Part shown: positions 10,373 to 44,859 of the stretch, one piece after another
How positions within the stretch are numbered: position 1 is the stretch's first letter
Layout: every line of letters starts with the position of its first letter
DNA from: Xiphias gladius
Lineage: Eukaryota; Chordata; Actinopteri; Istiophoriformes; Xiphiidae
Length of the DNA: 64,000 bases
Direction: 5' to 3'
Assembly: GCF_016859285.1 (NCBI RefSeq)
Contig: NC_053413.1
Span: forward strand, 22,870,001-22,934,000
Made by a program: the position numbers and the translations under genes
Notes under the pieces: model-generated
What the model was told of the DNA's origin: nothing
The model's input: only the letters and a program-made list of their open reading frames with translations
Databases searched by the model: none

Positions 10373-10422
10373 CTCGCTCTCTCTCTCTCTCTCTCTCTCG
10401 CTCCCTTTTTTTTTTTTTTTTT
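10373..10422. repeat. (CT)n microsatellite followed by poly-T
   Basis: A CT run of about 26 bases and then a T run of about 17 bases, inside the proposed long terminal exon of the ZNRF-like gene. Confidence 0.9.
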
Positions 10423-12949: not shown

Positions 12950-12955
12950 TTTATT
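12950..12955 (-). terminator. Polyadenylation signal of the NLRP1-like gene
   Basis: On the minus strand this reads AATAAA, about 355 bases past the stop codon at 13309-13311. It is the first canonical signal in that direction. The use is inferred. Confidence 0.5.
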
Positions 12956-13308
12956 GACGTAACATCTGCAGTAGCAAAAATATTCAGTAATTGCACAGCC
13001 GCATTTGTATCAATATACAAATCTTCAACGAGACAAAGCAGGGTAGACTTTCAATTCCAGTACGGAGAACACAGGGTCCACCTCCAAATGACTGTTGTTG
13101 TAATGATGCAATTAGTACTGTGGAAATATACATTACACTGAATTTATCATGTGAACCATGTGCACAGTACAGGTAGCCCCGATTCAGGAGTTTTAAGGTT
13201 TTAACCAAATGTTCTTAATCAATAGAGAAAGAGTTTAAGGGTAAAAACTTCAGAATTCAAAATGGGTTGGTGTGAGACAGAAACACCCGGATACGCACAG
13301 CTTCTGCT

Positions 13309-13748
13309 TCACATCAAGCTCAGCTCTGTCGAAAGGCACGAGTCCTCCTCAGAGAGAGCAGCGATCAGAGCTGAACTGGCTTGTGATCCTTTCCTTCGCA
13401 CCGTGTCGATCACCGCTCGAGCTTTGTCCGCCCTGTTCCGCGTTCCAGCAGACTCCATTTCCCCATCAGTTATCACCCCGAGCTCCAGGAGTCTATCCAG
13501 CAGCTTACGCAGAACGGGTTCAGACACCCTGTCGATAAACTGCGTCCGAACAGACATCAGCTTCTTTTCTGCTGGGACATGCGGAGCCCACGCTGGGACA
13601 TTCAGAGTCCCTGCCGGGACACGCGGAGTGAATGCTGGGACATTCAGAGTCCCTGCCGGGACACTCGGAGTCCCAGCTGTGATATTCGTAGTCCATACTG
13701 GGACACTTCGGTCTGCTTGGACACTAGAAGTCCTTGCTGGACCAGGAC
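13309..13748 (-). CDS. nlrp1-like: NLRP1-like terminal exon: repetitive linker plus CARD
   Basis: The acceptor is cctccag before 13748; the phase fits the preceding UPA exon (ACT G + GT CCT). The exon encodes a Pro-Gly start, a heptapeptide repeat linker (VPAGTLN-type units) and a six-helix CARD. The CARD starts near [16 protein letters not shown], includes [18 protein letters not shown] and [16 protein letters not shown], and ends ELSLM with TGA at 13309-13311. CARDs of this type bind caspase-1-like or ASC CARDs in inflammasomes. Repeat and CARD together form most of the fragment released by FIIND cleavage. The open frame would run on upstream through a CA repeat, which is intron, not coding. 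Confidence 0.9.
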
Positions 13749-13829
13749 CTGGAGGTTGAACAAGAAAAATACTTGTGTTCAATAACCACATGAATAGTAA
13801 CCACCAGTAATGTCTTGAGTAAAGCGCAG

Positions 13830-13910
<81 letters not shown>

Positions 13911-16900
13911 CGACCGATACGGACCACGTGTCAGAGACAAAGCGCTCCCCGGTGCACTCACAGGTTCCACAGTTTCCACCTGCGGTTTAAACAGACTGTG
14001 TTGTACTTGTGTAGACACGTCAGTGATGAACTCGTGTAGACGAGTGAGGGGTTCACGGCCTGCTGAGGTTACAGAATGACCGAAAGCTGTCTCACACACT
14101 CCTGAGCTGTCGTGGTCACTGTCGCTGGTTGACACAAAGACCGACAGGAAGCGGGAGGAGTTCAGTGACCATCCAGTGAGTCCTGGAGTCGGTTTAACAC
14201 TGAGTATGTTCTCTCAGCTTTCAGAGAGATCTGGTGGTACGTCTGGTCAATTATAATCCGAGGGGGACAAATGTACGTATTCACATATTGGCTGGGACAT
14301 CACGGCCCCCGGTGGACTTATCAACAAGCACTCCAGATTCACAGAGTGAAGCGGTACTGTCAACAGGGGGGGGGGCAGGTTTGTTCTGGCCGAACTGATC
14401 GCATTTCGATCCAGATACGTTCCGCTGCATTTGTACCTGCACTAACGCGTTTTTCCTTATGCAGAGAGGATACACAGATACCAGTCCCTCCCCGATACAC
14501 GGAACTGCCAACACTAAACAGGGTCAAGGTGTGGGTCCTTCTTTTCCAACACTGACTGTGATCAAAGTTACTTACAGCTTCTTCACACAGAGCTCCACAG
14601 TCCTACTTTTTACTATTTGGAATTTTGTTGACTCACAGATCAAAGTTTAAAATCCTTTTTTTTTAACTCATTTTTCAAACACTGGCCCCGAAGCTCCATG
14701 GCCAATAAGATCCGTTAAAACTGGTTACAAAGTGGACTGCAGAATAAAAGCAGACAGACGATGATCTGAGGCAGAACAATAATAGAAGCACCCGGGATCG
14801 ATCGACAACTATTACTCCATTTTCTTGTGCTCCTTTCTATCCTACTATCAGGCGGAGCGATGCCGCAGGTGGACGAAGACTTTACCAGTCAGGTCAACTT
14901 CCCGCTCCCAGACATCTGTATTTGTTTGGTCTCGGACAGTTATAGTCGCTTCTTCTGTGTTTATGGGCAGGCGGATCTCAAACGTTGGGTGGTAATTTGG
15001 TCCGAAATCCAGGTCAAAATCTTCTCTCTGAGAACCGGTAGCATCAGTGTCAGTATCTCGATAGCATCCAAAGTAAACTTAAGGTAACCAACAGCAGTTT
15101 TATGAAACGGGTCAGCATGTTCAAAAGCCTTTTATTTGAAATACTCACCTCAGGCTGTATTTTGTAGGCTTTCGGACACTGAACTGTGTAACTTTGATCT
15201 ATGATGAGTTTGCATTTGGAAGGCGCCTGGATGTACTCAGAATTCCGCTGTTTGGCGCTCACCTTAAGAGACACGAGAACATTTTAATTAGAGGGTTCGT
15301 CCTCGGTAGAGCCTGACTGATAAAGCAGCAGGGCCAGGACTACGTCATCGCAGATCTTTTGCATGTACTGCTGCCTCCCTCTGCGCCGGGGCCAGGCTTC
15401 TGGTAACGCCGAGGGACATACTGGGTTAGACTAGAGGGATGGTAAGGACAAGGAAAAAGATAAACACCCCCCCCCCCCCTCAACACCACCACCACCACCA
15501 CATCCTTTCTAGCCCACACCCTCCCACCAATGCATTGCCTTTCTGACAGTCCTTGTCATGTGATCTTAATCCAATTCTTGTCTATCTTTGTCGTATAACT
15601 TAGGTTTTGTCTAGCTTCACTAATAAAATGATAAAAAAAAATTTAAAAAACTTTTAAAAATAGCATTTTGTCAGGTAAGTAACTGGTCCTCGATATGTAT
15701 CACAATGTCTGATGGATATTGATGAGTTTGGACTGAAAGTGAAGCTGTAGCCATTTTTATGAATCCTTACCTCTTCCAGAGGGATGTTGCGTGGCAGGAG
15801 AAACACGTTGAGGTTTTGCCTCTGTGTTTTTGGGTTCAGTGGCCGGAGGAACAGCAAAATTTGGCCGCTAATTGGTTTCATGTTGTTCCAAATCCTCCCC
15901 AAAATCTCCAAAGCCCAGACGAGGCCGAATGCAGACAGATGAGGGACTTTGACGATCACATGGGTGTCTGTGATATCCAGCGGGTCGAGGATGCTCATTC
16001 CGTCATCGGTGATGTGGACGACAGACAGCAGGCCTTCAGAGAGCAGAGCTGCGAAAAACACAGAGGCGTTCAACATCGGTTTTACTGATGTTTTTTAATT
16101 TATTCAGGATCCCCAGATGGTAAATCCTGATGACTTTAGTGACCTCCCGATCTTTCCTCATGCACTATCCTGAGGACACAATTCGCACTTGTGTCTAGAA
16201 TTAGAAGAATTTGATGGGCAGCTTGGCAATAAGTGCACTAAGGAAAAGGGGAAAGACTCTTCTGTTTGCCCTTTTACCAGCCCAACTCTAAACCTGGACA
16301 AATGCTGTGAAATGGACTGATTCTGTGAACAGCTAAAGAGATCGTATTTAAGTATGCTAATTACTTTGCTGTGCACTTGTAAGGTACACCCTATTGCATT
16401 AAAATGCAATTTCTTTCTACCATTAAATGAATTTACTCTCTATACAGTGTGCCACAGTACAAACGTACACAACTTCTGTCCAAAATGCTATGAAACTGCA
16501 GTGTTTATTCATGGTCGCAGAGGATTCCAGTGCCTCTTCTCTAGTGGTCAGGTCTAAAAAAAATCCATTTGTATACAAGATATTGTAGAACAGTCTTATA
16601 TTTCTTATATTTATATATATATATTATGGGACAGCTGTAAAACGCAAATAAAAGCAAGTCCAAATCTCTCCCGATCTCCCAGTAATGCATACCTGCCGGG
16701 ATGCTGCGAGTGCACAGGAAGGTTAGAAGAGAAAACGTCGGTATGAGTGAGTACCAACAGGTATTAATGTAATAAACACAGTGTTTCTCGTAGGCCCGCA
16801 TAGTAGAAACTACATACATATGTAAGATAACAATATTGTCCTCAGGGGTCATTTCGGCTTGCAGTCATTCGTAGTCACGGTTAACCCATGAAATACCTCA

Positions 16901-19900
16901 GCAAAAAAAGTAAAAAGTTCAGGGAAACAAAATCGACTGATATCTGCGGCACTGTAGACTGTCAGCTATAGGCCTAAAAATAATAGGGACCATATGATTT
17001 TAAATTATATTGGTTTTAAACCCCAAAACACCATATGTTCCCTCTTTACTTTCACTAATACTGCAGCCCTATTTATACTGTCATTAGTGTGAGATTATTA
17101 GTAAAATCAGCTTAATATTCTTAATCGAATTTAATACATAATGAACTTAGCACATTTATTACAATTTACTGTGATATATCCAGCCTGTATTTGGCTATTA
17201 CTCGTAATCCCCTTCTCTGTCCGAAGACCTGCACTGTTACATTTTAGACTAAGATAAGGAGAAAGTGATGCAGAGACAAAGGATGATGACACAGACAGCA
17301 GGGAATTAAATTTGCATTTAACGTGCATATGCATTTCCAACAGTTCAGAAGCTGCCCTGGACGGCAGGAAATTGGAAAGACTTTCTCTCCTCAAGCCCCA
17401 CGGCCGCTGCTGGATCTCCGTTAAAAAATGTGTCCAGGCTATGGCCCTCATGTTCCAACATTACCCAGCTATGGCAGAACATCCACAAATGGTTATTAGT
17501 CAATATCAAATGTGTATTCTTCTTAGTGAAAACAATAAGAATGATAAATATCAAATCCTTTTATCAATATATTGGAAAAATGGGTTTGTTCCCTCACAAT
17601 TTTATCAGACAGAAAACTTTCAGCACAGTAGACCCACATGCTCCTAGGCAATTTCATTTCATCGCTTTGTTAATTATATAGCTCCTCACAGTTCCACACT
17701 GATGTTCCTTACTGTAACAGTAATACTGTATAGCTGATAACTTAATTTACTGTATAGAAATAAAACTGTCAAAACATCTGAGCTCCACGGAGCCATGTAT
17801 TCGTTGCCAGGCCAATGGGTGCCCACAGTAACCAAGTGTGCCCCAGTGAGCTCCGATAAACCTTATCATGCTTGAGGTCTTAATGGGCACCGCGACAGGA
17901 ACCGGACGTACGTCACAGTGTGGCTGTTGGGACAGATGTTTGCTGAGGCCGTGGCTGTGACGAACTCCGCAGCCTACAGGGGACACTGACAGAACCATAG
18001 AGTTTCATCATTTCTCAAACAAAGCACATTCATTTGCCTACCATCCCTTGTTTCACAGTGTGGGAGGTGGAGTTGACAGACAGCATCCTCAGGACACTGG
18101 ATATTGAACAGCGGCCCTGCAGCCAACTTGCCAGCTGACTGGAGGAGGCTCTCATCCCACTGGACAGTCCTGTAGAGCAGCTCCGCCTCCTGGGCCATAA
18201 CAAACACCAGTCCAGTCGAAGTACACTGAAACCCACCTGGACCAGGACACCTGAACCTGTAGGACACAGAAGGCTGAATGACCACCACGAACCAGTTAAA
18301 CCCTGAGATGAAAATGTTTTAACTTGGCCTAAAAACAACTGGAGTTCCTACCTAGTTTTGAAATCAAGTCTGAGTCAAAACTAGAACACACATATCAAAG
18401 CGCACCGCGCAGTAAGTGATGATGATGATGAGAGCAAGAAAGGCCCAACCTTCCAAGCACCACTTCATCTTTATCAGAGCTCCCATTGAGAAATGATCTG
18501 CAGGGGTTCTGGCCTCTGCACGGGACTGGCAGCTGCTGGCATACCTGGAGAGGCAGGTAAAGTTCCTCCAGTACATTACTTTCGTCATCCTGAGATCCAA
18601 CCTCGTTCTCTGGTCTGAATTCAGCGGACAAATTATGTTACTGGACCTGACAGGCCCCTTGGGAAGATTGTTTGGATGATGCCTTTGAAAGGCTGGTCAG
18701 TGTCTTTATTACTATAATCAAACTATGATCAATGTGCAAATACAAAGTCCAAACCATCAAAAGACGCGACAGAGCTGTTAAAGCTGACTGACAGCGGATC
18801 CCATCTGGGATCCAGCTGTGCTGTCGTCATCAGAGACTGACGGCGCTTCAGATGACGGTTCAGAGTAAAGGACTCATTTCTGTAAAAAAGTGTTTTCCTC
18901 TATTCCTCTCTCCTCGGGTCTTTTTCTACATCTCTCCTCCCGTCTTCAGTGGGACGGACTACGGCGCAAGGAAAACACGCAGGTGAGGGAAACGTTGGGG
19001 TCTTAACAGTAACACATTGGGCACTGAAAGGAGAGAGGGGGACGGGAGCCGAACATGAGACCACCAAAACAGCAGAGAGCAAATCAGGAGGTTGCTGTGG
19101 CTCAAAAGAGGAAAGCTGTGGGGGAAGAAGGAGGTACTTTGCCGAAAACAGTGTTAAGCTATTTTATTATGATTACCTGTATGAGACTTGTGCAGATTCA
19201 ATTTGCAGTACAGGCGTGAAGCTTGATGGTGGCTGGGATTCAGAAAGGAAAGACGTCAGTTGTTTTACTAGAAATAACCAACTTGTGTTCAGTGAAGCAA
19301 ACAAATATTCTAACGCAGTCCATACTTAAATGAAACACAATGTACAGATCAGAGAGAAAATGAGGTCTGAGTGGACTGATGGTGTGACACAAGTATAAGG
19401 TGCCATGGGAATTATTTACAAATTACATCTGAGTGGTTTGAAGCACAGCAGGTTCTGCAGTCTGCGGAGGGGTTATAACATGACAGCAGAAAAAATGCAA
19501 CAGACGTGAACTTCCGCGTCTGAGAAGGTACAAAAGACGAAGTTTAATAATTTATGAAAGTATAAAAGTCATAGAAATGGCTATGGCAAGGTATTTGGTG
19601 CCACATAGCGTAAAGGTGAATAGCAATAGCTAGAAATGTGTTTGTTGAGGTCACAAACGTGTCACAAACTGGCTCGGCAGTATGAAGACATCCACAAATC
19701 AAGTGGATACTTTCCAAAGCACAAAGAGGGATTTGCATACCGAAAAATACCATAACTTTGGAAGAAATACCACTGCAGTCATATTAAAAACAAGCTCACT
19801 ACAGTTTATAACAGATATTTTGACAGCAGCCGTGTTGTCAGACGTTCGAACTGGTCAAACTAAAGACGCATGACCAAAATTGGCTGACCAGCTAGAAATC

Positions 19901-22900
19901 CACCCGTTCGTCCGAAAGCCATATCGCTGATCGTTCAGGTGATTGATAAGGCATCGTGACCTCAAACTGGACATCAAACAACAACCGATCTCACCGACAT
20001 TTGTCCAGATTCTAGAATTACTCGCGACGACAAATTAAGGGCAAAACCTGGGCTGAATCTGTACAGTGTCTGCCTGTCTTAAAGAAATTACATGGAGTTT
20101 TTTTTTAATTGCCAAATTTTTCAGAAAATTCTCCTCTCACACACAATGCAAAAATCTACACAATAGATGTTTCAGTTTTGTGATCCACAGAGGCACTTGA
20201 CGCATTTCTCTTTCTCCACCCGTACAAAGTGTTGAAGAAGTACCCAGCTAGAGGGGACATTTGTTGAATTCCTTGAATATTTGTTTTCCATTGCCTGCGG
20301 CGTTTTGAGCCCTTAAATCTGTCTGGAATATCGGGATACAAGGGTTTTTCTCTCACCTCCATCAGCTCTGTGTCGTCCTCAGACACACCCAGCTTTGTGT
20401 CTGCTGTGTTCGGGTCCAGTTCAACATCAGAGCCACCTAATGGGAGGAGAAGACACACAGCGGATATCAGAAACCAGCATTTTGCTGTTACTCTCTTCAT
20501 CAGATCTACGACTGGGATGAAGTCAGACAATGAGCAGGGTCCAAAAGCAGCAGCTCAAAGCCACCTGTCACCCCTTTCCTCTCAGATGCACCTGGTTTTC
20601 TATTGGCTGCGTAACAACCTGAGCGGACGTGTCCAAATATCTGCTACTGAGTCAACTTACTCTATAGTGCGGACATGCTAGCTGCTTGTAGCTGCCTTTG
20701 TTACGTGAAAATCGCAGACTGCAGCCATGTTTTTTTTAAATATACGCTCTGGTACACAGCAGAGCTGTACTGTAGAAAGTCAAACCTGGAGAGAATGATT
20801 ATGAGCTTTCCTCCATGTCAGCAGTTCATTTGTTTAGGTATCAGGGTCTTGTTCTGGCATCAGCTGCATTGGCACAACAACGCAGTCGGGCTTATTTAAT
20901 ACTTTTGGATCACAGATCTGCAGCGATACTTTGGCCTAAAGTCTGTTTTTCTCTGATAACAACACACACATTCCCCTTGAAAACACAGGCAAATATTAAA
21001 AAAGCACAATCATCTTCATCGAAGTGATCTGTCAACATTTTCTGTTACCTTTGTTTGACGATGATGGATTCTCTGAGCACAAATCTCTTTCGGCAGCACG
21101 CTGCACACTCACTGAGAATATTTAGAGAGCATGAAGATCGTTTGATTAAAATTCATGTACTGTTTTTTGTTTAAAAACTGTTTTATAGAAAACATGAAAA
21201 AATATCAACTTCATTCTTGTATGCGACTTTCTTACAAATTGGGCTGAGTGTTTTTTTCTGAATGAAGTCACTGATCCTCCAGGTATGCCCCCCCGCTTCC
21301 ATAAAGACCCAACCGGTCTCTGGCAAATTTCATACGTTTATTTTAGACAGACATTCATTATGAACACTGATTGTTAAATTTACTCAATCGTAGTGAGCAA
21401 AATGATCAGCATGAATATCTTTACATTAGCAAACCACAGGGTCTGAAAGCAAATTTAAAGCTTTTTGAGACCTCAACAAAGAACATATCTGACCATGCCG
21501 CTGGTCTGAAGTGCATTTCGAGTGAGTCTGCACCTGTACGATCTTCTTTTGACAGACCCTCTGGAAGATCAGAGCGTATGCAGAGTCAACCAAAGAGGAA
21601 TAACATCATCAATCATGGAGTCCTTGAAGAAACCAGTGAATCATGGCAAGTCACAGAAGCTAAAGTCAAGCCACTGCTTGTTGACAAATTACAAAATTTT
21701 ATCCCATATCAGTGGAAACTGAAAATGCGCATTCGCAGGGGAAAATTTATGAAGAGCAGGACAACAGGTCACGGTCAATTGTGATGAAGTTGCTCAGATC
21801 GAGGGATAAAGAAGTGAATTCGACAGAGAGTATAAACTTAAGGGCAGCAGGATTTTCATTCACCAGGATTTTACAGACAATGTGAGACAAAAACAAACGG
21901 AGCTGCGATCTGAACTTAAGGAAGCACATGATGAGGGACAGACTGCAGATCTCCATTATGATCAAGTCATTGTTCACAAATCGCTTTCTTCGTGAATAAT
22001 TAGATTTTACCTCATGCTTATATTGTTACGACAGCTGCCTCGGTTGTTTTTTTCTTTTGCTCAGTCTGCCCTTCTGTCCCCGTCTCCAGACACTTCACAT
22101 TTTCCAGTCAGATTTTACTGATGACAGGTTGATGAATGGGAGACACTGTTTCAGTACTCACATGTTTTGTCTGTGGAAGCTTTAATCTGCCTGGTGTCGA
22201 CCCTGTAGGGACAAGCAGAACCACAAGTGTTACAAAGTGAGTGGAAAATAATCATATTTGGTTTGAGTTAGCTCTATTAAGGCCTAACAGCGATAATACC
22301 AGGTCAGTCTCACCCAGCTGAATTTTAACCGATCCTGTATTAATAAACCTAATTAGTAGGTTAGTCAGTGGACTTTGGGATCAACCCGAGCTTTACAGTC
22401 TCACTTTTAAGCAGGGTACCACAGTATCATCATGGTAACCAGCCCAGAATCAGGTTGGGTTTAAAGGTCAAATCAAAATGTATAAACAACCTGCCTCTCA
22501 ACCAATCAGATCTCCAGAAAACTAAAGGCATCACTTCTACAGCAAGACTTTTTGGAAGTTCAGGATTTGATCATTCTTGTCCTGATATTCCAGCTGCTGC
22601 ACGTCCTTTTTTTATTTTATCCGCCGCTATACAAGGAGTCATCAAACCCTCTATTATCTCTCTCGTTTTCCTATACTTTATTTTTTCAGAATTATTGCAG
22701 ATCTTGTGTCAGTGTTTTAATACATCCAGTAAAATGGTTTCTCCTTCCTTTGTGTCGGCCTCTGTCTTTCGGCCATTCGCTGTTGTTTATGTTTCTGTTG
22801 TCCCTTCTCCTTCTTTAGATCAGCCAGCTCATGTTTTCTTTCATTCCTAAAGTCTCTTAAATCCCCTCGAAATTCTTTGTGATTTCTCTCAACATTTTGT

Positions 22901-30790: not shown

Positions 30791-30858
<68 letters not shown>

Positions 30859-33800: not shown

Positions 33801-36800
33801 TATGTTTGAGATTCTATGTTTCCAAAGATACCAAATATGTCAGGCTGGATTTTAGGTGGTGGGGGGATCAATCAGTACGAGGTGAGTATCAGTCCAGCTG
33901 CCGTCATTTTCAATCGACATGGAAGCTGCGGTTTCTGGGAGCAGTTAATGTAGAGGAAGTAATATGTCGATTTAGGAAATATTATTTCTGTAACTCCACT
34001 TACAACAACCCCTTACAGCTGCAAACATCTCATCCACACTTGGAAATCTAGTAGAAAAATGTAGGATTTTGGAGTTTCCTCAACATTGCTCTGGGAACAG
34101 TCACTGGACCAAACCATAGAAGGAGAAAATCGACTTTACCATTAAGATACTCAGTGTGGATCAGTATAATATCACCCCTATGTCTGCAGTTTTGTGTCAC
34201 CACAACTTTCACATTATATTAATCTAAGCACAGAACTAAAAAATGGTGTCTGACCTCAGAGTCTCCAGTCTACAGTCTGGACTCTCCAGAAAACCACACA
34301 GCAGCTTCAATCCTGAATCCTGCAGGTTGTTTCCACTCAGCTCCAGTTCTCTCAGATGGGACGGGTTGGACTTCAGAGCTGAGACCAGAGAAGAACAGCT
34401 GATCTCTGACAACCTGCAGCCATTCAATCTGAATAAAGAATAAAACTTGTAACTTCAAAAGACACATTTCCTGTGACTATTCAATGTTCATAATCTGTTC
34501 AAGAACTGAAGAAGGTTTATAATATAGAAGTTTAGAAAATGGAAATCAAACACCTAGACAACAGGATGCAGGTTAAAAACAGCAAAATACAAAAAGTGAA
34601 AAAGAGATATTAATGATAGCAAGCTGCTGCTGCTTCACTCGACACGTATTGACTTCACCTCTTAAACTCTGCCAGCTCTACCGGTGGCTCCAACAATACA
34701 AACTCATTGTTGTGCAGCTAAATGTATTTGAGATTTGACTATATCTACAACATCCTCAAGTTTTCAAAGATAACAAACATGTCAGGCTGAATTTTCCCTA
34801 AAATCCCTGGAGTGACATTGTCATTGTGTTATTGTGGATCATCATCATGTCAGCCTTCTACACACATCATCCAAATGTGACCACAACATTCATACATCTA
34901 TTCGTGTCAACACAGATTAATAACATGCTGCTGACCTCAGTCAAATCTGTAATTAGAAGATAAATATCAAATCAGACATGTTGGACAAAAATTCAGTTCA
35001 TTGTTTAATTCATTACGACCTTCTTCTTCCTGTATTTGGTAGCTTAAACAATGTTAAAAGTAAAGATGGGTCCTGATAGCCAATTCCATTTTTGATCCTG
35101 TTCTGCGGCCAACAAATCCCTTATCAAAGATTTCATTCATGTTCTCTGTTTAGTCTCCGTTGCCTCTCTCTGACACGACAGGCATCAGTAAAGAAAAATA
35201 AAAGACTGATGACGTAAGCAAACATGTGATAACCCGGCAAACAACAAACATGGCTGACCCAGTATTCATGTTAAATGACGTTTCGACCTGTCAATGGGTT
35301 CTGCAGTGGGTATCAGGCCATGCCGTCATAAATCTTCTGGGGCATGACAGGAAACACCGTTCTCAACCCCTGATCTAAACTGACCTAACAGATTTTAAGC
35401 TGCTTTTAACTCCTACCCTCACCCAAGACAAGGCCTTATATCTGCACTGTAGCGGCAGAGGCTAAGATGCTATGGCTGACCCCACTGGCTTGAGGGGCAG
35501 TTTCGTCTAAATGCCACGGCCTGCTCAGTGATCCAGGTGTCACCCCTACTTATCTTGCTCCACTAGTCCTACAACTACTTTCCCGTTATATCAGAAAATG
35601 AGCACTCTTTGACCCTGTGCACCTTTAAAGTGTTCTTTAATCCCATCCTCGATGAAGCTCTTCAGGCATCTCAGAAACAAATGCACAGCCGAAATACGAA
35701 AGGCTAAAACTAATTAATATTTGCTTTTAATTCCCAATTCATATTCAAATCCATCAAAATTCTGGAAGGCAGTGAATTCTCTTAACCTGCAGTCTTCACT
35801 CTCATTCTCTCCTGTCACTTCAGCAGATGGATCCATAATATCAGATCATAATGAGATTTGAGTTGTTTTTTATAAACACTTTCTAGCTGCTGGCAAACTC
35901 TTTGAAGAAACGCATGTGAAATAAACTGGAACCTTAGAAACCTTTTATTTTTCCCAAAAAGCTCACATTTGATAAATTGTCATTCGCCAATCAATGAATG
36001 ACACTGCATCCTATTCTATCATGTGACTTCCCAGTTAAGGTGCAATATTTGTTTGTTGAAGAGAGATGCAGGTTTTGTCATGTTTAAGGAGCAGGAGTAC
36101 CAGAATATCTGTTAGTTTGTTCATAAAGTTTCTTATTTCAAGACAAAAAGAATATTTTCAAAAACTATATATACGTCTGTACTACCCTAAATCAAAAAAA
36201 CTATGACTGAATCTCAAGCTTTCTCTGAGGTCCATTCTCTTCACCAACTTATTTAAAAAAAAAAAAAAATCCCCACACACAAATCAAAATAATGTATGTA
36301 CTGCCAATGAAAAGACCGAAAGTTTTGAATTTGAATTGATTTGAAGCCGAATATATACAAAAGAAAACTACAATAGCAACCCAGTCCATGAACTGACCTC
36401 AGACTCTCCAGTCTCACAGTTTGGACTCTCAGTCCAACAGACAGCAGCGCCGCTCCTGAATCCTTTAGATTGTTCCCACTCAGGATCAGTTCTCTCCAGA
36501 TGGGAGGATTGGACTTCTGAGGCTGAGGCCACACTTACTTCACAGTGAGTCTCTGCGAGAGCCTCACACAGCACAACAGAGATCTGTGATTAGAAATGTA
36601 TGTACCAATCTGCTACTAGGAATAAAATCAGACAATTTAGTAATAAAAAAATACACTCTCTGCATTTGATAACAAAACATGACATAATGATTAACATCTA
36701 TTCTTCACATTAAGTGGTTGAGCTAATCTTATTTTATATTGTTTGCAGCAACAATATTCCTCATCACTAAACTCTCATATACTGCAGACCTTTAGTGAGG

Positions 36801-39800
36801 AATCATTGTTTTACTTTAATATTACCCCGGGTGAAGGGAGGAAAGAGGAAGTTAATTTTCAGCTACCCATAATGTGATACTTGGAGTCCCCAGAGTCAAA
36901 ATGAAGCCATCTTGTTTAGAAAAACATTTTTATTTTTTCCACTATTTCTAAATTGACTCCAGAGGCATTGCTTCTGAGAGTTTAACTCAGAGATCTTCTT
37001 GCTAGTTTTGCTTGCTAAATTGTTTTCACAAAATGTCATGAGAAAAAACATAACATTGACCTTTGGTGCGTATAAGAAGTCTGAGTTCTCCCATTCTATC
37101 TTATATATTCAGACTTTCTCTTCTTGGCTGATGCATTTTTCCTGTTACTACTCTCCTCTACAGAACAGAGAAAACACCTGAGTTTTCTGTCTAATTTAAC
37201 TGAATATTTTGGAAAAGGGCTTTTAAAAAGCCAGTTCATGAAACTTAAAAAAACTATCCTAGGCACTCTTCAAAGTGAAAGAAGTTTAATTCAGAAACAG
37301 TATCTCTGGGTCTGGTATGACCAGTACTTTATTGATCATGGCTAATCTGAATGTTTCACAGAACTTTGAAAGATTGTTGTGTAAAAATGACGTTACTAGT
37401 CAGTTCAGTGATTAGATGACTAATGCTACTTGTGCAACTGTTACACTATTTTAAGTTTAACCTTTATCTCATAAGTGTTTGTTGTTACCACGGGGCTGTT
37501 CAGCAAAGTTATACTCACTTAAATGTTGAAAGTAAAACAATGTTAGTACTTTACCTTTTACTTTAGCGGGCATTTTTTATTTCATTTGATTTAAAGGGGG
37601 TGAGTGCCCTGAAGACATCCTCCGTATATTATGACTTCAGCACTCTTGTTACACTGTCAGGCGTGTAAAGCTGATACCCGTAGACAGAGCTATCATCTTC
37701 TTCTTATTTCAAGACAAAAAGAATATTTTCAAAAACTATATACATTATGTACTACTCTAAATCAAAAAAACTATGACTGGTCTCAACTTTCTCTGAGTCC
37801 ATTCTCTTCACCAGCTTATTTAAAAAAAAAAAAAAAAAATCTCCACACACAAATCAAAATAATGTATGTACCAATGAAAGACCGAAAGTTTTGAATTTGA
37901 ATTGATTTGAATTGAATATATACAAAGAAAACTACAATAGCTCCAGTCCATGAACTGACCTCAGACTCTCCAGTCTACAGTTTGGACTCTCCAGTCCAGC
38001 AGACAGCAGCTTCGCTCCTGAATCCTTTAGATTGTTCCCACTCAGGATCAGTTCTCTCAGATGGGAGGGATTGGACTTCAGAGCTGAGGCCACCACTTCA
38101 CAGTGAGTCTCTGAGAGCTCACACACAGCAAGTCTGTGATTAGAAAATATGTACAATCTGCTAGAATAAAATCAGACAATTTGTAATAAAAAAATACACT
38201 CTGCATTTGATAACAAAACATGACATAATTTGATTAACATCTATTCTTCACATTCGTGGTTGAGCTAATCTTATTTTATATTGTTTGACAACAATATTCC
38301 TCATCACTCGCTCTCATACCTGCAGACCTTTAGTGGGAATCATTGTTTTACTTTAATATTGCAGGTGAAGGGAGGAAAAATGAAGTTAATTTTCAGCTAC
38401 CATAATGTGATATGATCCCCAGAGTCAAAATGAAGCCATCTTGTTTAGAAAAACATTTTTATTTTTTCCACTATTTCTAAATTGACTCCAGAACATTGCT
38501 TACGAGTTTAACTCAGAGATCTTCTTGCTAGTTTTTTGCTAAATTGTTTTCACAAAATGTCATGAGAAAAACATAACATTGACCTTTGGTGCGTATAAGA
38601 AGTCTGAGTTCTCCCATTCTACTCTTATATATTCAGACTTTCTCTTCTTGGCTGATGCATTTTCCTGTTACTACTCTCCTCTACACGAACAAGAGAGAAA
38701 ACACCTGAGTTTCTGTCTAATTTAACTGAATATTTGGAAAGACTTTAAAGCCAGTTCATGAAACTTAAAAAAGAAACATCACAATTTCACTCTTCAAAGT
38801 GAAAAGTTTAATTCAGAAGCAGTATCTCTGGGTCTGGTATGACCAGTACTTTATTGATCATGGCTAATCTGAATGTTTACGAACTTGAAAGAGATTGTTG
38901 TGTAAATGACATTACTGAGTCAGTTCAGTGATTAGATGACTATTCTCTGCTTGTGCAACTGTTACACTATTTTTAGTTTAAACCTTTATCTCATAAGTGT
39001 TTGTTGTTACCACACCGGACGCTGTTCAGCAAAAGTTACATACTCACTTAAATGTTGAGAAGTAAACAATGTAAAGTAGCACCTTTACTTTAAGCGGGGC
39101 ATTTTTTGTTTCATTTGATTTAAAAGGGGGTGAGGTGCCCTGAACATCCTCCATGCTCATTATGACTTCAGCACTCTTGTTACACTGTCAGACGTATTAA
39201 AACTGATACCGCGGAACCAGAGCTATCATCTTTCTTATTTCACACATTCCTCTTCCTTGGCAAAACCTGTTGTCTACACTAACTACGATGCAACTGAACC
39301 GCCAAAACTTGGATGTTAGATTGGAGTGGTTTATGCTGCTGGGTGCTAATGTAGCCTGCAGCAGAGATGAGGGTGGGGGGCTACAGAGGTCTGGTAAGTT
39401 CCCTTCTTTCTAACTCCACACCCGGGCATTTTTTTAATTTTCAAACTTGTAGACTTCAGATCCAACTGACGCTGACTCAAATAACATCACTTGAGGACAT
39501 TTATCAAATGTCATATAGCTCCCCATGGAGACACTCACGGCTTTATACCATTTTTACTCATATGCAGTCGTATTCCCCAACACTTTGAACCACATTGCGT
39601 TGTGAAATAGGTGGAGTCCCGATCTAATTTGTTTTACCAGGTTTGCATAAACCCAAAAAGACCAGAAACAACACAGGTAGAATAATAACAAATAAATGTA
39701 GCATCTAACAAATCTCATTATTAAACAAAAAAATAGCCTTGTTTATTTTCTTAAAGGCAATAATCACAACTGACTGAAAAATCTTCAACCTGGCGCTCAC

Positions 39801-42800
39801 AGTATTTACAACACCTCAAGAAAAAAAACACAAACTAAGAATAATGAGAATAATTTAATACTGTGTATATATGAATTTGACTAAACCACTAATCTAATTT
39901 ACTTATCAATAATTCTAATGCTCATGTCTGGACTTACTGAGCCTTTCTGCAGTTCCTCACAGCTGGGATCAGTCTCAGTCGTCCCTGGTATGATGTGTTG
40001 TACTTGTTCAGGTCCAACTCATCCAGAACCTCCTCTGACATCTGCAGCATGTAGGCCAGAGCCGAGCAGTGGATCACAGAGAGTTCCTTCTCTGATCTGT
40101 TCTCTGACTTCATGAACTCCATGATCTCCTGATGTACTGAGTGGTCGTTCATCTCCATCAGACAGTGGAAGATGTTGATGCTTCTGTCAGGAGAGATTTC
40201 GTACATGTTCATCTCCTTCAGGTTGTCGATGGCTTTCTGGATGATTTCTGGACTGTTCTCTGTCTGACCCAGCAGGCCTCCTAAGAGTCTCTGGTTGGAC
40301 TCCAGAGAGAGGCCATGAAGGAAGCGAACAAACAGGTCCAGGTGGCCACTGTTACTGTCAAGGGATTTCTCCATGGCTCTCCTCAGGAAGACATCCAGAG
40401 ATGGATAACGGCTATCATGGTTTCCAAAAATTTTAGATATCTTCTTGAGAAAAGAGTTTGGGTTTGAGTCTCTATGTTTGTAGTCTTTTCCCCGGAAAGC
40501 CTTCAGGACTGTTGTGTTACTGTTGAGATAACAGTGAAACATGTAGACCGCAGCCAGAAACTCCTGAATGCTCAGATGAACAAAGCAGTAGACTGTTTTC
40601 TGGAAGATCACATGCTCTCTTTTGAAGATCTCTGTACAAACTCCTGAGTACACCGTGGCCTCTGTGACATCAAGACCACACTGCTCCAGGTCTTTTTGGT
40701 AGAACAAGATGTTTCCTTTTTCCAGATGTTTAAACGCCAGCCCCCCCAGCTTGAGAAGAACTTCCCTGTCAGCGTCCATCAGCTCCTGTGGACACATCTC
40801 ATTCACCTCATCATACTTGTGCTTCTCCCTCTTTTTCTGAACCAGCAGGAAGTGTGAGTACAGGTTAGTCAGGGTCTTAGGCAGCTCTCCTGTCTGGTCT
40901 GTGGCCAACATGTCCTCCAGAACTGTAGAAGTGATCCAACAGAAGACTGGGATTTGACACATGATGTGGAGGCTCCTGGATGTCTTGATGTGCGAGATGA
41001 TTCTGCTGGACAGTTCTTCATCACCGAATCTCTTCCTGAAGTACTCCTCCTTCTGCGCGTTAGTGAAGCCTCGTACTTCTGTTACTCTGTGAACATATGT
41101 AGGAGGGATCTGATTGGCTGCTGCAGGTCGGGAAGTTATCCAGACAAGAGCCGACGGAAGCAGATTTCCCTGGATGAGGTTTGTCAACAGCACGTTGACT
41201 GATGATTTCTGCGTGACATCAGACACAACTTTTCTTCTGTCAAAATCCAGTGAAAGTCTGCTCTCATCCAGGCCGTCAAAGATGAACAAAACTTTACAGA
41301 AAGCGAGCTTCTCTGCTGTGACCTTCTGCAATGTTGGATGGAAAACATGGAGCAGCATGAGAAGACTGTACCACTCATCTTTGATCAAGTTCAGCTCCCT
41401 AAACGAAAGTAGAATCAGCAGACTGATATCTTGGTTTTCAAAGCCCTCTGCCCAGTCCAGAGTGAACTTCTGCACTGAGAAGGTTTTTCCAACACCAGCG
41501 ACGCCGTTCGTCAGAACAACTCTGATGTGTCTCTGTTGGTCAGGTAAGGCTTTAAAGATGTTGTGGCACTTGATTGGAGTGTCATGGAGGGTCTCCATCT
41601 TTGAAGCTGTCTCAAGCTGCCTCACCTCATGTTGGGTATTTACCTCTTCACTCTGTCCCTCTGTGATGTAGAGCTCAGTGTAGATCCTGTTGAGGAGGGT
41701 TCCTCTTCCTGTTTCAGCAGTTCCTTCAGTCACCTGTTCACATCTCCTCCTCAGACTTATCTTATGTTCATCTAAAACCTCCTGCAGACCACTACTTACT
41801 GAAAGAGAAGAAAAAAAAAAAAGCATGGTAAGTGCTGCAACACAACAAGTCCTGTTTTCAGAAATGAGGACATCAGCAGAGAGATATGCAGTCCTACTTT
41901 GTACAGTGCTGGTCGGACTGGCTGTCTGCAGTTGAGGTCTTGCTCTGGATCCTTGTCCACGCTGGGGACAAAAGGAGTCTCCTGATGAACCAGACTGGTT
42001 CCGGTTTGAGGTGATGCACTGTCTGCAGAACGAGTGTCCACAGCTGGTAGAGACTGGCTCCTTCGGCACGTGCAAAGCACACCAGGACAGCTGCTCCTCC
42101 ACAGAAGTCCTGTTTTCAGAGCATGGGGTGAGTTACTACCTAAAATATAACTTTTCTGTATCAAGCTTCTCAGATTCGAGTAAAAGGTGGTACATGTGAA
42201 TGGTAAAGCTCTAGTCATGACTGATGCACTCTTGAGCCTTTGATCTGTAATGAACCATTACAGATCCTGACAGAAAAGGAGGAGTTTGAAAGTGTCATCC
42301 AGTTGGTGGTTGACTGCATTCACACACGGCTGCAGCAAAAACAGCAAAAACTGTGCCAAATGTTGATTGAGTTTGTATAAAAAGCTGTCCAAAAAAAGAG
42401 GAACTACCAACTCAGCTTAAACCATAACACATACACCAAAGTGATCGCTGCTCTACTGGGGGCTGCTAATGAAGGGGAGGACTGTTCTTATAGAAAGTTT
42501 AAAGACTGAGATGTTGGACACAGTGCAGGGTGGACATAGGCAAGCAATCTGGTGGCTATCATAGAGTACAGATAGAGAAAGACTTGTGACGCAGTGTGAC
42601 TGTATAATAGTCAGCCCCATGCCCTGACCTTCTCACGGGAAGGAGTCTGGAGTCAGGACTTGTAACACAACTCAGAGACTCAGATAAAAGTTTATAGAAT
42701 ACGACTCTGCTGTTGTAAACTGTGCTGCTGTGCAGAACTAAATAAAGCAGTTAACAAGCGTGACTTCACGTGGTGTTAGATTTTTTGCGCTGACAAGTTT

Positions 42801-43490
42801 GTCCCAAAGGAAAAGTACAACAGTCTGGAAGCGACAGCACTGCGGGATTTAATCCCCCGACAAACTCTGCCTGGGATAAACCTGCCGAGTGCCCCAACTG
42901 AAAACAGCAGTTTGAAAGACGCAGAGTCGCAACCAAACTCAAAGAACTGCCAAGTGGTGCGGTGCTGGCGAGGTGCCTCATCTATACAATGGGTAGCGAA
43001 GCAGAGAACATTTACAAGTTGTTTCAGGTTGCTGAGGATGGAGACCGAAACAGCGTAGTGGTGCTGGGAAAGTTTGATGAGCACTTCATCCCAAGAAGAA
43101 ACATCATCCACGAATCAGGACTTTGAGTATTTAGATCAAATAGCTGGTGGATATAAAGTGTAAAAGTTTTTTTCTAACCTCATGGTCAACAAATAGTCTC
43201 AGTTAAGCGTTTGAATTTTAACTGAAAGCTAAAACAACTTAGATTTGAAAAGGGATTAGACTACAAGATTCAGATTCAGTATGTAGACTGGATAAAATGC
43301 CATCGAACCCCAACCCTACTCATATCAAGTCTTTTCTGCATACAGTAGAAACGGTGTCTTACTTTGTGTCTGAGGGTCCAGGTTCATTACTGAGGCCCAG
43401 AGGATCTTCTTTGGACCAGTCACTCTTCACAAATGGATGGCTGAATACTGGAGACTCTACTCTGCCCTCCTTTTTCTCTAAATCACTCAT
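13309..43490 (-). CDS. nlrp1-like: NLRP1-like NLR gene: RING-relic, FISNA-NACHT, LRRs, FIIND, CARD
   Basis: Exons in transcript order: 43363-43490, 41898-42109, 39938-41798; LRR cassettes 37960-38133, 36398-36583 (broken), 34255-34428, 32762-32935, 31270-31443, 28303-28476, 27387-27560, 25446-25619, 23901-24074; FIIND 18042-18256, 15771-16048, 15149-15262, 14886-15027; CARD 13309-13748. With 174-nt cassettes the phases close and give about 1,650 codons. The order NACHT-LRR-FIIND-CARD is that of fish NLRP1, a cytosolic inflammasome sensor. There FIIND self-cleavage leaves a C-terminal UPA-CARD that recruits caspases or ASC once freed. Joining every exon into one transcript is inference: a linker exon before FIIND may be missing, and a fusion of neighbouring NLR fragments is possible. 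LRR number may vary between alleles. Confidence 0.75.
13571..13738 (-). repeat. Coding 21-bp minisatellite (heptapeptide repeat) before the CARD
   Basis: About eight consecutive 21-bp units are visible, for example gctgggacattcagagtcc and its variants. The last two in plus-strand order are degenerate. On the minus strand they encode heptads such as [21 protein letters not shown] and VPAWAPH. Units 2 and 4 are identical, which points to recent slippage or unequal exchange. As 21 is a multiple of three, copy changes keep the CARD in frame. Confidence 0.88.
13831..13909. repeat. (AC)n microsatellite, 79 bp, in the last intron of the NLR gene
   Basis: An uninterrupted AC run lies between the last UPA exon and the CARD exon. 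Long Cys/Val or Thr/His reading frames through it are not genes. Confidence 0.97.
14886..15027 (-). CDS. nlrp1-like: NLRP1-like UPA exon, C-terminal part
   Basis: The acceptor gttctcag precedes 15027 and the donor gtaaag follows 14886. The exon reads [20 protein letters not shown] and then a stretch ending [10 protein letters not shown], the typical end of the UPA half of fish FIIND domains. UPA oligomerises the freed C-terminal fragment in mammalian NLRP1 and CARD8. Phase in is 0 and phase out is 1, fitting both neighbours. Confidence 0.85.
15149..15262 (-). CDS. nlrp1-like: NLRP1-like UPA exon, middle part
   Basis: A 38-codon exon with phase 0 at both ends. The acceptor tctcttaag precedes 15262 and the donor gtgagt follows 15149. 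It encodes [19 protein letters not shown] and continues to YKIQPE, a signature stretch of the UPA part of FIIND in fish NLRs. Confidence 0.88.
15771..16048 (-). CDS. nlrp1-like: NLRP1-like FIIND exon: end of ZU5, self-cleavage motif, start of UPA
   Basis: The acceptor gtttttcgcag precedes 16048 and the donor gtaagg follows 15771. It encodes [18 protein letters not shown], then [11 protein letters not shown], and ends RNIPLEE. In mammalian NLRP1, CARD8 and PIDD, self-cleavage occurs before the Ser of an HFS motif. The matching position here is His-Leu-Ser, codons 15941-15933. Phase (2 nt in, 0 out) fits the neighbouring exons. Confidence 0.9.
18042..18256 (-). CDS. nlrp1-like: NLRP1-like ZU5 exon (N-terminal half of FIIND)
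   Basis: It encodes [20 protein letters not shown], then [14 protein letters not shown] and [19 protein letters not shown], the classic start of fish FIIND/ZU5. The donor gtaggc follows 18042. The acceptor gtgtcctacag before 18256 fits the phase of the last LRR cassette (AG + G). The frame stays open upstream through VSYRF, which often belongs to this domain, so the true 5' edge could lie further up, near 18311. A possible linker exon lies near 18556-18630 (donor cag|gtatgc), but its frame is not settled. Confidence 0.85.
18257..23900 (-). other. Large intron between the LRR and FIIND exons
   Basis: It holds a PRY-domain relic at 20309-20436. There is also an unexplained open stretch at 18364-18640 containing a hydrophobic segment ([14 protein letters not shown]). 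No other recognisable exon is seen. The long plus-strand frame at 22368-22850 is low-complexity and resembles no protein known to me. Confidence 0.5.
20309..20436 (-). pseudogene. PRY (B30.2) domain exon relic
   Basis: After a good acceptor (cctcccattag before 20436) the minus strand reads [20 protein letters not shown] and, a little later, [10 protein letters not shown]. This is the LDPNTA ... YPD.P.RF pattern of PRY domains found at the C-terminus of many fish NLRC3-like and TRIM proteins. The rest of the B30.2 (SPRY) domain is absent: after 20309 the frame runs into a Lys/Arg-rich sequence with no similarity and stops at 20156. It lies on the NLR strand, between the LRR and FIIND exons. 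Confidence 0.7.
23901..24074 (-). CDS. nlrp1-like: NLRP1-like LRR cassette 9 (last)
   Basis: A 174-nt exon, 58 codons, phase 2 in and out, acceptor attattcag, donor gtcagt. It encodes [20 protein letters not shown], then [20 protein letters not shown]: two ribonuclease-inhibitor-type leucine-rich repeats. Last cassette before the FIIND exons. Confidence 0.88.
24909..25422. mobile_element. MITE with 8-bp target site duplication (hAT-like)
   Basis: The left end reads caatgactgtatataaagat. The right end, reversed, reads cagtgactgtttataaagac, so terminal inverted repeats of about 25 bp are visible. The 8-bp sequence taacagac flanks both sides (24901-24908 and 25423-25430), the target size of hAT elements. 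No transposase is inside, so it is non-autonomous. The interior is CpG-rich near 25220-25290. It sits beside the donor of LRR cassette 8. Confidence 0.85.
25446..25619 (-). CDS. nlrp1-like: NLRP1-like LRR cassette 8
   Basis: A 174-nt exon with phase 2 at both ends, acceptor attattcag, donor gtcagt. It reads [20 protein letters not shown] and [20 protein letters not shown]. The hAT-like MITE ends 15 bases beyond its donor region (target duplication at 25423-25430). Confidence 0.88.
25803..26774. mobile_element. Non-autonomous DNA element with long inverted ends
   Basis: The left end reads ggaagccctaagaggcaggt and continues through attctggtgatccattttct. The right end is the inverse (agaaaatggatcaccagaat ... 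agggcttcc). The inverted arms are about 55-65 bp with small differences. The 4-bp sequence atac flanks both ends (25799-25802 and 26775-26778). There is no open frame of transposase type. It lies in an LRR intron of the NLR gene. Confidence 0.8.
27387..27560 (-). CDS. nlrp1-like: NLRP1-like LRR cassette 7
   Basis: A 174-nt exon, phase 2 in and out. It reads [40 protein letters not shown] and [14 protein letters not shown]. Flanking intron sequence (acagacagtcagtgaactgac) is shared with cassettes 5, 6 and, in part, 8. Confidence 0.88.
28303..28476 (-). CDS. nlrp1-like: NLRP1-like LRR cassette 6
   Basis: A 174-nt exon with the same splice signals and phase. It reads [20 protein letters not shown] and [20 protein letters not shown]. 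Confidence 0.88.
28890..31090. other. Repeat-rich intron between LRR cassettes 5 and 6
   Basis: No exon is recognisable. It includes two tandem copies of a unit of about 155 bp (about 29635-29790 and 29791-29945; shared ctgtataccaaat and tttacattatgtaaattagc) and an ATA microsatellite at 30791-30857. Confidence 0.55.
30791..30857. repeat. (ATA)n microsatellite
   Basis: An uninterrupted trinucleotide run of about 67 bases in an LRR intron. A poly-Ile reading frame through it is an artefact. Confidence 0.96.
31270..31443 (-). CDS. nlrp1-like: NLRP1-like LRR cassette 5
   Basis: A 174-nt exon, phase 2 in and out. It reads [20 protein letters not shown] and [20 protein letters not shown]. The cassette is the LRR exon next to the recent tandem duplication at 31444-34428. 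Confidence 0.88.
31681..32227. mobile_element. hAT-like MITE inside the duplicated LRR intron (copy 1)
   Basis: Starts ttacccccctttgcaccaac and ends cttagtggaaaaggggtaa, so imperfect inverted ends TTACCCC..TTT..CAC are visible. The second copy at 33168-33715 arose with the tandem duplication, not by a new insertion. No transposase and no clear target duplication are seen. Confidence 0.6.
32762..32935 (-). CDS. nlrp1-like: NLRP1-like LRR cassette 4
   Basis: A 174-nt exon, donor gtcaga, acceptor ctttattcag. It reads [20 protein letters not shown] and [20 protein letters not shown]. The encoded peptide is identical to cassette 3, as expected of the tandem duplication. Confidence 0.88.
33168..33715. 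mobile_element. hAT-like MITE inside the duplicated LRR intron (copy 2)
   Basis: Nearly identical to 31681-32227, with the same imperfect ends and the same neighbours on both sides. Confidence 0.6.
34255..34428 (-). CDS. nlrp1-like: NLRP1-like LRR cassette 3
   Basis: A 174-nt exon with the same signals and peptide as cassette 4. If the two 1.49-kb copies are an assembly duplication, one of the two cassettes is not real. Confidence 0.85.
36398..36583 (-). pseudogene. Broken LRR cassette 2 of the NLRP1-like gene
   Basis: Its splice signals (acceptor taatcacag, donor gtcagt) and overall sequence match cassette 1, but it is 186 nt long with several small insertions (for example tctcacag for tctacag). 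In the cassette phase it meets an in-frame TAA soon after the acceptor. Pieces such as [12 protein letters not shown] survive. It may be a true pseudo-exon or a sequencing error; the noisy surroundings favour error. Confidence 0.7.
37960..38133 (-). CDS. nlrp1-like: NLRP1-like LRR cassette 1 (first after NACHT)
   Basis: A 174-nt exon, phase 2 in and out, acceptor taatcacag, donor gtcagt. It reads [20 protein letters not shown] and [20 protein letters not shown]. It differs more from the other cassettes, as the first LRR exon often does in fish NLRs. Confidence 0.85.
39938..41798 (-). CDS. nlrp1-like: NLRP1-like FISNA-NACHT exon
   Basis: A single 1,861-nt exon, acceptor tctctttcag before 41798, donor gtaagt after 39938. 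It begins with the fish-specific FISNA region ([31 protein letters not shown]). The NACHT ATPase follows: Walker A GVAGVGKT (about 41482-41505), Walker B with [10 protein letters not shown], and [14 protein letters not shown]. Helical regions follow ([39 protein letters not shown]), ending PAVRNCRKA at the junction to the LRRs. NACHT domains bind ATP and drive oligomerisation. Nothing essential is missing. The open frame also runs through intron 2 upstream, which is chance. Confidence 0.95.
41898..42109 (-). CDS. nlrp1-like: NLRP1-like degenerate RING exon
   Basis: Acceptor ctgaaaacag, donor gtagga. It encodes [20 protein letters not shown], then CGHSFCRQC and later FCPQRGQGS. Many fish NLRs carry a RING-like finger before FISNA, of the form CxxC ... 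CGHxFCxxC ... CPxC. Here the first CxxC has become C-A-L-H with a short deletion, and the last CPxC has become CPQR. At least two zinc ligands are therefore gone. Phase 2 in and phase 1 out fit the neighbouring exons. Confidence 0.8.
42593..43130 (+). mobile_element. LTR-retrotransposon fragment with part of a gag gene
   Basis: On the plus strand, about 42985-43120 reads as a gag-like piece, including [12 protein letters not shown] and [15 protein letters not shown], a pattern of Ty3/gypsy-type gag proteins. The upstream part is frame-broken. Further upstream, 42593-42756 starts TG, ends CA and has an AATAAA, so it may be LTR-derived. No pol or second LTR is seen. It lies antisense in the first intron of the NLR gene. 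Confidence 0.55.
43363..43490 (-). CDS. nlrp1-like: NLRP1-like first coding exon
   Basis: ATG at 43490. It reads [20 protein letters not shown], then [12 protein letters not shown] and ends GPSDTK at the donor gtaaga after 43363. The MSDLE...SP....VKSDWS...P...EPGPSDTK layout is the usual opening of fish NLRC3/NLR-C proteins. The 128-nt length leaves phase 2, which fits the RING exon (AA + G). An acceptor-like tttacccctcag lies just before the start, so a non-coding first exon probably exists further upstream. Confidence 0.82.
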
Positions 43491-44524: not shown

Positions 44525-44579
<55 letters not shown>

Positions 44580-44845
44580 GTCAGTCAGCAGGCCTGTTCG
44601 CATTGCATGAATTGAAAATGCGTGAAATCAGAGTTGTCTGGTCCTGTCCGCGGGTCTGAAATCAACACGTCTCATTTTATAATTGTTGGTGCTTCTCGGT
44701 TGTAACCGGGTTTAACAAATCTACGCAGCCGGGTCAAAAGCATTCGCAAAAAGCAAAAAAAAACCCAAAACAAAACAAAAAAACAGCAACAACAACAACA
44801 ACAAAACTTATCTAAAATATTACAAAAACAAAAACAAAGCTATAG
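43491..44845. other. Intergenic DNA between the divergent NLR and lifeguard genes
   Basis: No exon is recognisable. It should contain the NLR promoter and 5' UTR, but no clear core promoter is seen. A (TC)n(AC)n microsatellite lies at 44524-44578. Confidence 0.5.
44524..44578. repeat. Compound microsatellite (TC)n(AC)n
   Basis: A TC run at 44524-44542 is followed by an AC run to 44578. Confidence 0.95.
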
Positions 44846-44859
44846 GTGATCACTAAGAG

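What the first reader, a model, noticed from the sequence alone, without database searches (positions are those of the whole stretch)
13309..43490. Large fish NLRP1-like sensor: RING relic, NACHT, LRR cassettes, PRY relic, FIIND and CARD on one strand
The sequence shows all these blocks on the minus strand with compatible splice phases from start codon to stop. Fish NLRP1 with NACHT-LRR-FIIND-CARD is known. The N-terminal RING-type exon and the PRY trace in the intron are marks of the fish NLRC3/NLR-C group. The locus may therefore be a hybrid: an NLR-C body joined to a FIIND-CARD tail. It is the best candidate here for an unusual immune system component.
Basis: partly seen in the sequence, partly recalled or inferred. 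Interest (0 to 1): 0.72.

Follow-up and report, generated by a model that had tools for sequence, protein, structure and literature searches.

The report
Fish NLR-C gene with NLRP1-type tail
This is a mostly intact fish immune-sensor gene whose body is of the fish NLRC3-like kind and whose tail is the self-cutting FIIND-CARD module known from NLRP1; the combination has been reported in outline in other fish, so it is ordinary apart from some details.

Summary
On the minus strand, 16 exons (43490 to 13309) join at GT-AG borders in matching phase into one 1593-residue frame: start exon, degenerate RING, FISNA-NACHT-WH-HD2, eight LRR cassettes, FIIND (ZU5-UPA), CARD. A PRY stump before FIIND cannot be spliced in frame from the last LRR exon. 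The "hybrid" idea is sound but known in outline: Walker A (GVAGVGKT) and large-exon end ([11 protein letters not shown]) fit NLR-C group 6, and some round goby group 6 genes have a C-terminal CARD (PMC6988351). RING, PRY/SPRY and CARD are reported among black rockfish NLRC3 genes (PMC10648357), FIIND-CARD tails in fish NLRPs (PMC11508797). Details found here: the cleavage site reads HL|S instead of SF|S, with catalytic His and Ser kept; the RING keeps 5 of 8 zinc ligands; 36130-37711 is probably an unpolished assembly duplicate; a likely linker exon (19232-19177) shows that the LRR-FIIND joint is incomplete. No transcript and no related fish sequence could be tested.

The parts
43363..43490 (-). 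exon 1, start codon, donor phase 2
41898..42109 (-). exon 2, degenerate TRIM-type RING (5 of 8 zinc ligands in place), phase 2 in, 1 out
   Evidence: splice scores weak
39938..41798 (-). exon 3, FISNA-NACHT-winged helix-HD2; Walker A GVAGVGKT, end [11 protein letters not shown] (NLR-C group 6 motifs)
   Evidence: motif table seen
37960..38133 (-). exon 4, LRR cassette 1 (a different LRR type from cassettes 2-8)
36130..37711 (-). probable assembly duplicate of 37701-39242 (indel-rich near-copy) holding a scrambled LRR exon at 36583-36398; not counted in the gene model
34255..34428 (-). LRR cassette 2
32762..32935 (-). LRR cassette 3 (protein identical to cassette 2; 1.49 kb apart)
31270..31443 (-). 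LRR cassette 4
28303..28476 (-). LRR cassette 5
27387..27560 (-). LRR cassette 6
25446..25619 (-). LRR cassette 7
23901..24074 (-). LRR cassette 8
20309..20436 (-). PRY stump (profile positions 1-39 of 49), no SPRY found after it; acceptor fits phase 1, not the phase 2 of LRR8
19177..19232 (-). probable FIIND linker exon, phase 0 in, 2 out; its upstream partner exon was not found
   Evidence: found with a peptide recalled from memory
18042..18256 (-). FIIND exon a (ZU5 part)
15771..16048 (-). FIIND exon b: catalytic His, predicted cleavage bond HL|S (residues 1307|1308), start of UPA
15149..15262 (-). UPA exon c
14886..15027 (-). UPA exon d
13309..13748 (-). last exon: linker with 21-bp coding minisatellite, CARD, stop codon

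Best explanation
It is a protein-coding fish NLR gene of the NLR-C group 6 kind with an NLRP1-type FIIND-CARD tail. Inferred working: the NACHT-LRR body and the ZU5 part hold the C-terminal UPA-CARD piece silent; the FIIND cuts itself once (predicted between residues 1307 and 1308) and the two pieces stay together; loss or degradation of the N-terminal piece frees a 286-residue UPA-CARD fragment, whose CARD seeds ASC or caspase-1-type filaments. Shown here: gene anatomy, open frame, domain homology, conserved catalytic His and Ser. Inferred from mammalian NLRP1 and CARD8: cleavage, release and signalling.
For: 16 exons in phase with GT-AG borders and a single open frame. Domain hits. Walker A and exon-end motifs match the group 6 row of Table 4 of PMC6988351, which also reports C-terminal CARDs in some group 6 genes. 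FIIND aligns to CARD8 and NLRP1 chains with the catalytic His (H1186 of human NLRP1) and the nucleophile Ser (S1213) in register (roles seen). CARD is closest to caspase-1 CARD among solved chains (9.1e-9). For several pairs of LRR cassettes 2-8 the similarity (92-96%) covers the exon and few flanking bases only, for example 25441-25640 with 32757-32956, as expected for homogenised or selected coding exons; other pairs extend into introns.
Against: The cleavage site departs from mammals: Leu for Phe at P1 and Leu at the column of E1195. [quoted passage not shown] No transcript seen. The linker exon suggests that the LRR8-FIIND joint of the model is incomplete. Group 6 was assigned by two short motifs, not by a tree, and the exon-end motif also fits the group 3 pattern. 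One probable assembly defect lies inside the gene.
Confidence: 0.75

Rival explanations
1. Two transcription units: an NLR-C gene (RING-NACHT-LRR) ending before FIIND, and a separate CARD8-like FIIND-CARD gene that starts in the 23.9-18.3 kb interval.
For: The interval is 5.6 kb long, holds a PRY stump, 5 AATAAA and 5 ATTAAA motifs (expectation not computed), and the linker exon 19232-19177 takes phase 0, which LRR8 (phase 2) cannot supply.
Against: LRR8 and FIIND exon a are phase-compatible (2 to 2) and keep the frame, which by chance happens one time in three. On the minus strand the Pfam scan (E up to 0.1) shows in 15.5-23.9 kb only PRY, FIIND and UPA pieces, and on the plus strand none at E up to 1 in 15.5-24.1 kb. 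The order NACHT-LRR-FIIND-CARD is in print for carp and zebrafish.
Confidence: 0.15
2. A decaying or non-functional copy: broken RING, PRY stump, scrambled LRR exon and altered cleavage site are steps of pseudogene decay.
For: RING ligands lost, scrambled LRR exon, P1 Phe replaced.
Against: The 1593-residue frame has no internal stop; Walker A is intact; FIIND, UPA and CARD score well above Pfam cut-offs.
Confidence: 0.15
3. A side question, independent of the others: the scrambled LRR exon and the LRR tandem copies are real duplications, not assembly noise.
For: The 31265-34648 tandem copies include perfect runs of 464 and 505 bases, and LRR duplication to varying degrees is reported for zebrafish NLRs (PMC4852459 passage). 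Two of the four control pairs also have more indel bases than substitutions.
Against: For 36130-37711 a near-unit-cost alignment gives 44 substitutions and 124 indel bases (82 extra, 42 missing), ratio 2.82, found throughout its length (2 to 21 differences per 100 columns); the four control pairs gave 0.30, 0.44, 1.23 and 1.85. The contrast is graded, not absolute.
Confidence: 0.2

Closest known systems
NLR-C group 6 genes with C-terminal CARD (round goby, PMC6988351; passages seen)
   Same: Walker A GVAGVGKT, exon end L(I/V)P(A/V)VRNCRKA, no PYD, no B30.2, C-terminal CARD
   Different: That paper's text does not use the word FIIND (0 occurrences in the listings) and has no whole word RING; here ZU5-UPA links LRR and CARD, and a RING exon and a PRY stump are present. 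Its supplements were not seen.
Zebrafish and carp NLRP1 (Li 2018, Zhao 2022; not seen, known through section 5 of the review PMC9978379, read)
   Same: NACHT-LRR-FIIND-CARD order, no N-terminal PYD
   Different: Orthology not testable here; the NACHT exon here carries NLR-C group 6 motifs; a RING exon is present here and is not mentioned in that section
Black rockfish NLRC3 genes (PMC10648357; one passage seen)
   Same: FISNA, NACHT, LRR and RING in NLRC3 genes; some with PRY, SPRY or CARD
   Different: That text has no FIIND (0 occurrences in the listing); which domains occur together in one gene was not seen
Mammalian CARD8 and NLRP1
   Same: FIIND with catalytic His and Ser, UPA, C-terminal CARD
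   Different: SF|S there, HL|S here; the E1195 column is Leu here; NACHT nearer NLRP3; CARD nearer caspase-1

Membership tests
NLR-C group 6 (teleost) | FISNA-NACHT with winged-helix and helical domains on one large (about 2 kb) exon | tested here: met
   1861-nt exon with these domains
NLR-C group 6 (teleost) | Walker A GVAGVGKT and exon end L(I/V)P(A/V)VRNCRKA | tested here: met
   GVAGVGKT at residue 212, [11 protein letters not shown] at the exon end against Table 4 seen; the end also fits group 3, the Walker A does not
NLR-C group 6 (teleost) | no PYD, no B30.2 | tested here: met
   no PYD hit at E up to 0.1; only a PRY stump without SPRY
NLR-C group 6 (teleost) | clusters with group 6 NACHT exons in a tree | not testable with these tools
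   no fish NLR collection on hand; the genome search was asked 9 times and not answered; scans of viral contigs (NACHT) and genome contigs (FIIND-UPA) found no relative
NLRP1 | NACHT-LRR-FIIND-CARD order | tested here: met
NLRP1 | FIIND autocleavage residues (His, Ser, Phe at P1, Glu) | tested here: inconclusive
   His and Ser kept, P1 Phe is Leu, Glu column is Leu; activity not testable
NLRP1 | NACHT closest to NLRP1 (a similarity yardstick, not an orthology test) | tested here: not met
   NLRP3 3.3e-41, best NLRP1 chain 2.2e-19 among solved chains; fish NLRP1 not available
NLR-B30.2 genes | C-terminal PRY-SPRY | tested here: not met
   39 of 49 PRY positions only, no SPRY found, out of phase with LRR8
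RING E3 ligase | eight zinc ligands C3HC4 | tested here: not met
   5 of 8 ligand columns in place; the first holds Trp and the last Arg in the TRIM25 alignment, the second Ala in all three alignments shown. Against this, two Pfam RING models still score above their cut-offs, and a Cys and a His stand near the lost pair

The most novel reading that the evidence does not exclude
NLR-C genes that gained a FIIND-CARD tail may already have carried a TRIM-type RING at the other end. An active RING there could ubiquitinate its own N-terminal piece and so fire the sensor by degrading itself; copies with a broken RING, like this one, would instead depend on foreign or host proteases and ligases. A related possibility is that the HL|S site marks a FIIND kind that cuts by other rules, or not at all.
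Probability: 0.07. Interest if true: 0.7.

Novelty: new member of a known kind. Interest (0 to 1): 0.27.

Why it matters
It gives the exon map of an NLR-C gene with a FIIND-CARD tail and shows that a C-terminal CARD on such a gene can come with a whole ZU5-UPA module, so such genes may work by release of the tail and not by simple oligomerisation. It also warns that LRR counts in such genes can be inflated by assembly noise. It does not change the known picture of fish NLRs.

Tried and rejected
Rejected: a possible SPRY piece at about 16.7 kb (AGMHYWEIG) had no Pfam match at E up to 1. A coding PRY exon: direct splicing from LRR8 meets a stop at the third full codon. The LRR copy at 36583-36398 as a real exon: scrambled reading inside an indel-rich duplicate, although its length is a multiple of three. 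Exon candidates of phase 2 to 0 in 23.9-19.25 kb: none in a strict scan, two in a looser one, neither convincing. MAFFT counts alone (133 substitutions and 50 gaps, against 50 and 16, and 23 and 2, in two control pairs) did not separate noise from age well, so a near-unit-cost alignment was used; even there two of four control pairs have ratios above 1.

Led nowhere: scans of viral contigs and genome contigs for stray fish relatives. Pfam coverage is partial outside the gene: minus strand, two of three frames of 1-13251 and three frames of 43500-63501; plus strand, 1-9999, 15500-24100 and 43500-53499. The third minus frame of 1-13249 was not scanned because one search failed.

Full report
What was checked. 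Read-through frames of the minus strand from 13252 to 42251 were scanned with Pfam at E up to 0.1. They gave, from high to low coordinates, RING, FISNA, NACHT, NOD2_WH, NLRC4_HD2, LRR_6 in several places, PRY, FIIND, UPA in three pieces, and CARD. On the assembled protein the values improve: FIIND 2.5e-44, UPA 8.9e-35, CARD 1.3e-12, FISNA 1.6e-29, NACHT 7.3e-30, HD2 5.1e-31, WH 6.2e-19, RING (zf-C3HC4) 1.1e-6.

Gene model. Exon borders were placed by motif and checked for AG/GT and phase. Sixteen exons join into 4782 nt with one stop, at the end (1593 residues). Exon lengths are 128, 212, 1861, 8 x 174, 215, 278, 114, 142 and 440. Skipping the RING exon would join a phase-2 donor to a phase-1 acceptor, so the exon is needed for the frame although its splice sites score weakly. 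Its RING is degenerate: of the eight ligand columns the first holds Trp and the last Arg (TRIM25 alignment), and the second Ala (TRIM30, TRIM5 and TRIM25 alignments). Two Pfam RING models still score above their cut-offs.

The LRR array. A protein query of both LRR types found eight intact 174-nt exons and one scrambled one. The scrambled exon lies in 36130-37711, an indel-rich near-copy of the adjoining 37701-39242. With near-unit edit costs the pair differs by 44 substitutions and 124 indel bases, 82 of them extra in the suspect copy; four other repeat pairs of the locus gave indel to substitution ratios of 0.30, 0.44, 1.23 and 1.85 against 2.82 here, and differences occur throughout (2 to 21 per 100 columns). 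An unpolished long-read segment is the simplest reading, not proven. The 1.49-kb tandem copies around LRR2 to LRR4 differ in parts by short length changes and in other parts not at all, so even the count of eight is uncertain.

Between LRR and FIIND. A PRY match (2.2e-6, just over its cut-off) covers 39 of 49 profile positions at 20425-20309. A recalled SPRY query found nothing better than E 0.11 in the whole window. The PRY acceptor fits phase 1, and splicing from LRR8 soon meets a stop. A recalled linker peptide led to a 56-nt exon at 19232-19177 with good splice scores (acceptor 5.9, donor 3.1) that runs in phase into FIIND exon a, but its entry phase 0 does not fit LRR8. So the true transcript probably has one or more exons that the model lacks; a direct LRR-FIIND joint is possible but not established.

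The tail. The assembled FIIND aligns to CARD8 chain 7jkq (5.7e-11), NLRP1 chain 7crw (6.3e-9) and NLRP1 chain 6x6c (2.8e-8) (the species of these chains are recalled, except that 7CRV is named rat). By the numbering of 6x6c, the His of VVHITDDGM lies under H1186 and the Ser of PHLS under S1213; F1212 is Leu, and the E1195 column is Leu with Asp next to it. Roles of these residues: PMC9700037 passages (triad E1195, H1186, S1213; cut between F1212 and S1213), PMC8081665 passage (loss of autocleavage when the His is mutated), PMC3210808 passages (SFS motif completely conserved in its alignment of mammalian proteins, F296H of CARD8 severely defective). The CARD is nearest caspase-1 CARD (9.1e-9), then ICEBERG (5.1e-6) and a CARD-only protein (3e-5); CARD8 follows at 0.012, and no NLRP1 chain appears among the 28 matches up to E = 10. 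Between UPA and CARD lies a coding 21-bp minisatellite.

What it is. The body is of NLR-C type: the NACHT exon is nearest NLRP3 (3.3e-41) and far from NLRP1 (2.2e-19) among solved chains (no fish NLR among them was recognised). GVAGVGKT and [11 protein letters not shown] match the group 6 row of Table 4 in PMC6988351 (passages). The exon end alone also fits group 3, whose Walker A differs (GIAGIGKT) and which has B30.2. That paper states that some group 6 genes have C-terminal CARDs, with 12 C-terminal CARDs annotated in round goby, and that miiuy croaker NLRs cluster with groups 5 and 6. PMC10648357 (one passage) lists RING in black rockfish NLRC3 genes, and PRY, SPRY or CARD in some. PMC11508797 (passages) states that some fish NLRPs end in B30.2 or FIIND-CARD. 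PMC9978379 section 5 describes carp and zebrafish NLRP1 as NACHT-LRR-FIIND-CARD without PYD.

Against full familiarity: another passage of PMC9978379 lists at least 8 NLRC3 or NLRC3-like architectures without RING or FIIND, and PMC12436146 (passage) says that the structure of the FIIND in fish NLRP1 has not been identified. I did not find a paper that describes RING, an NLR-C group 6 NACHT and FIIND-CARD in one gene; the searches were made, in an open-access library, from which I saw listings and passages of a few papers and no supplements. The hybrid is thus plausible and known in outline.

How it most likely works. By analogy with NLRP1 and CARD8: constitutive self-cutting in FIIND, a held-together pair, removal of the N-terminal piece, release of a 286-residue UPA-CARD tail, ASC and caspase-1 recruitment. 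For zebrafish NLRP1, ASC dependence is reported (review); whether functional degradation operates in fish is called unclear there. Shown here are only the parts and their conserved residues. The Leu at the cut site makes the first step uncertain.

Limits. No transcript, no fish comparison sequence, no tree; the genome search tool did not answer in nine requests. The species is unknown; groups 5 and 6 are reported as absent from Otocephala, so a spiny-rayed type of fish is likely (inference).

Noticed in passing
window 52342-58899, minus strand: Pieces of a PARP gene with WGR, PARP regulatory and PARP catalytic domains, upstream of the NLR gene on the same strand.
   Followed up: no
window 36130-37711: Indel-rich near-copy of the adjoining 37701-39242, probably an unpolished read or gap filling in the assembly.
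   Followed up: partly
window 13569-13711: 21-bp minisatellite in the coding frame between UPA and CARD, giving a VPAGTLN-like repeat that may vary in length between alleles.
   Followed up: no
window 1889-2074, plus strand: Weak match to a Tc3-type transposase helix-turn-helix (E 0.002, below its cut-off), possibly a transposon remnant.
   Followed up: no
window 13831-13909 and 30791-30857: Pure AC and ATA microsatellites in introns of the gene.
   Followed up: no
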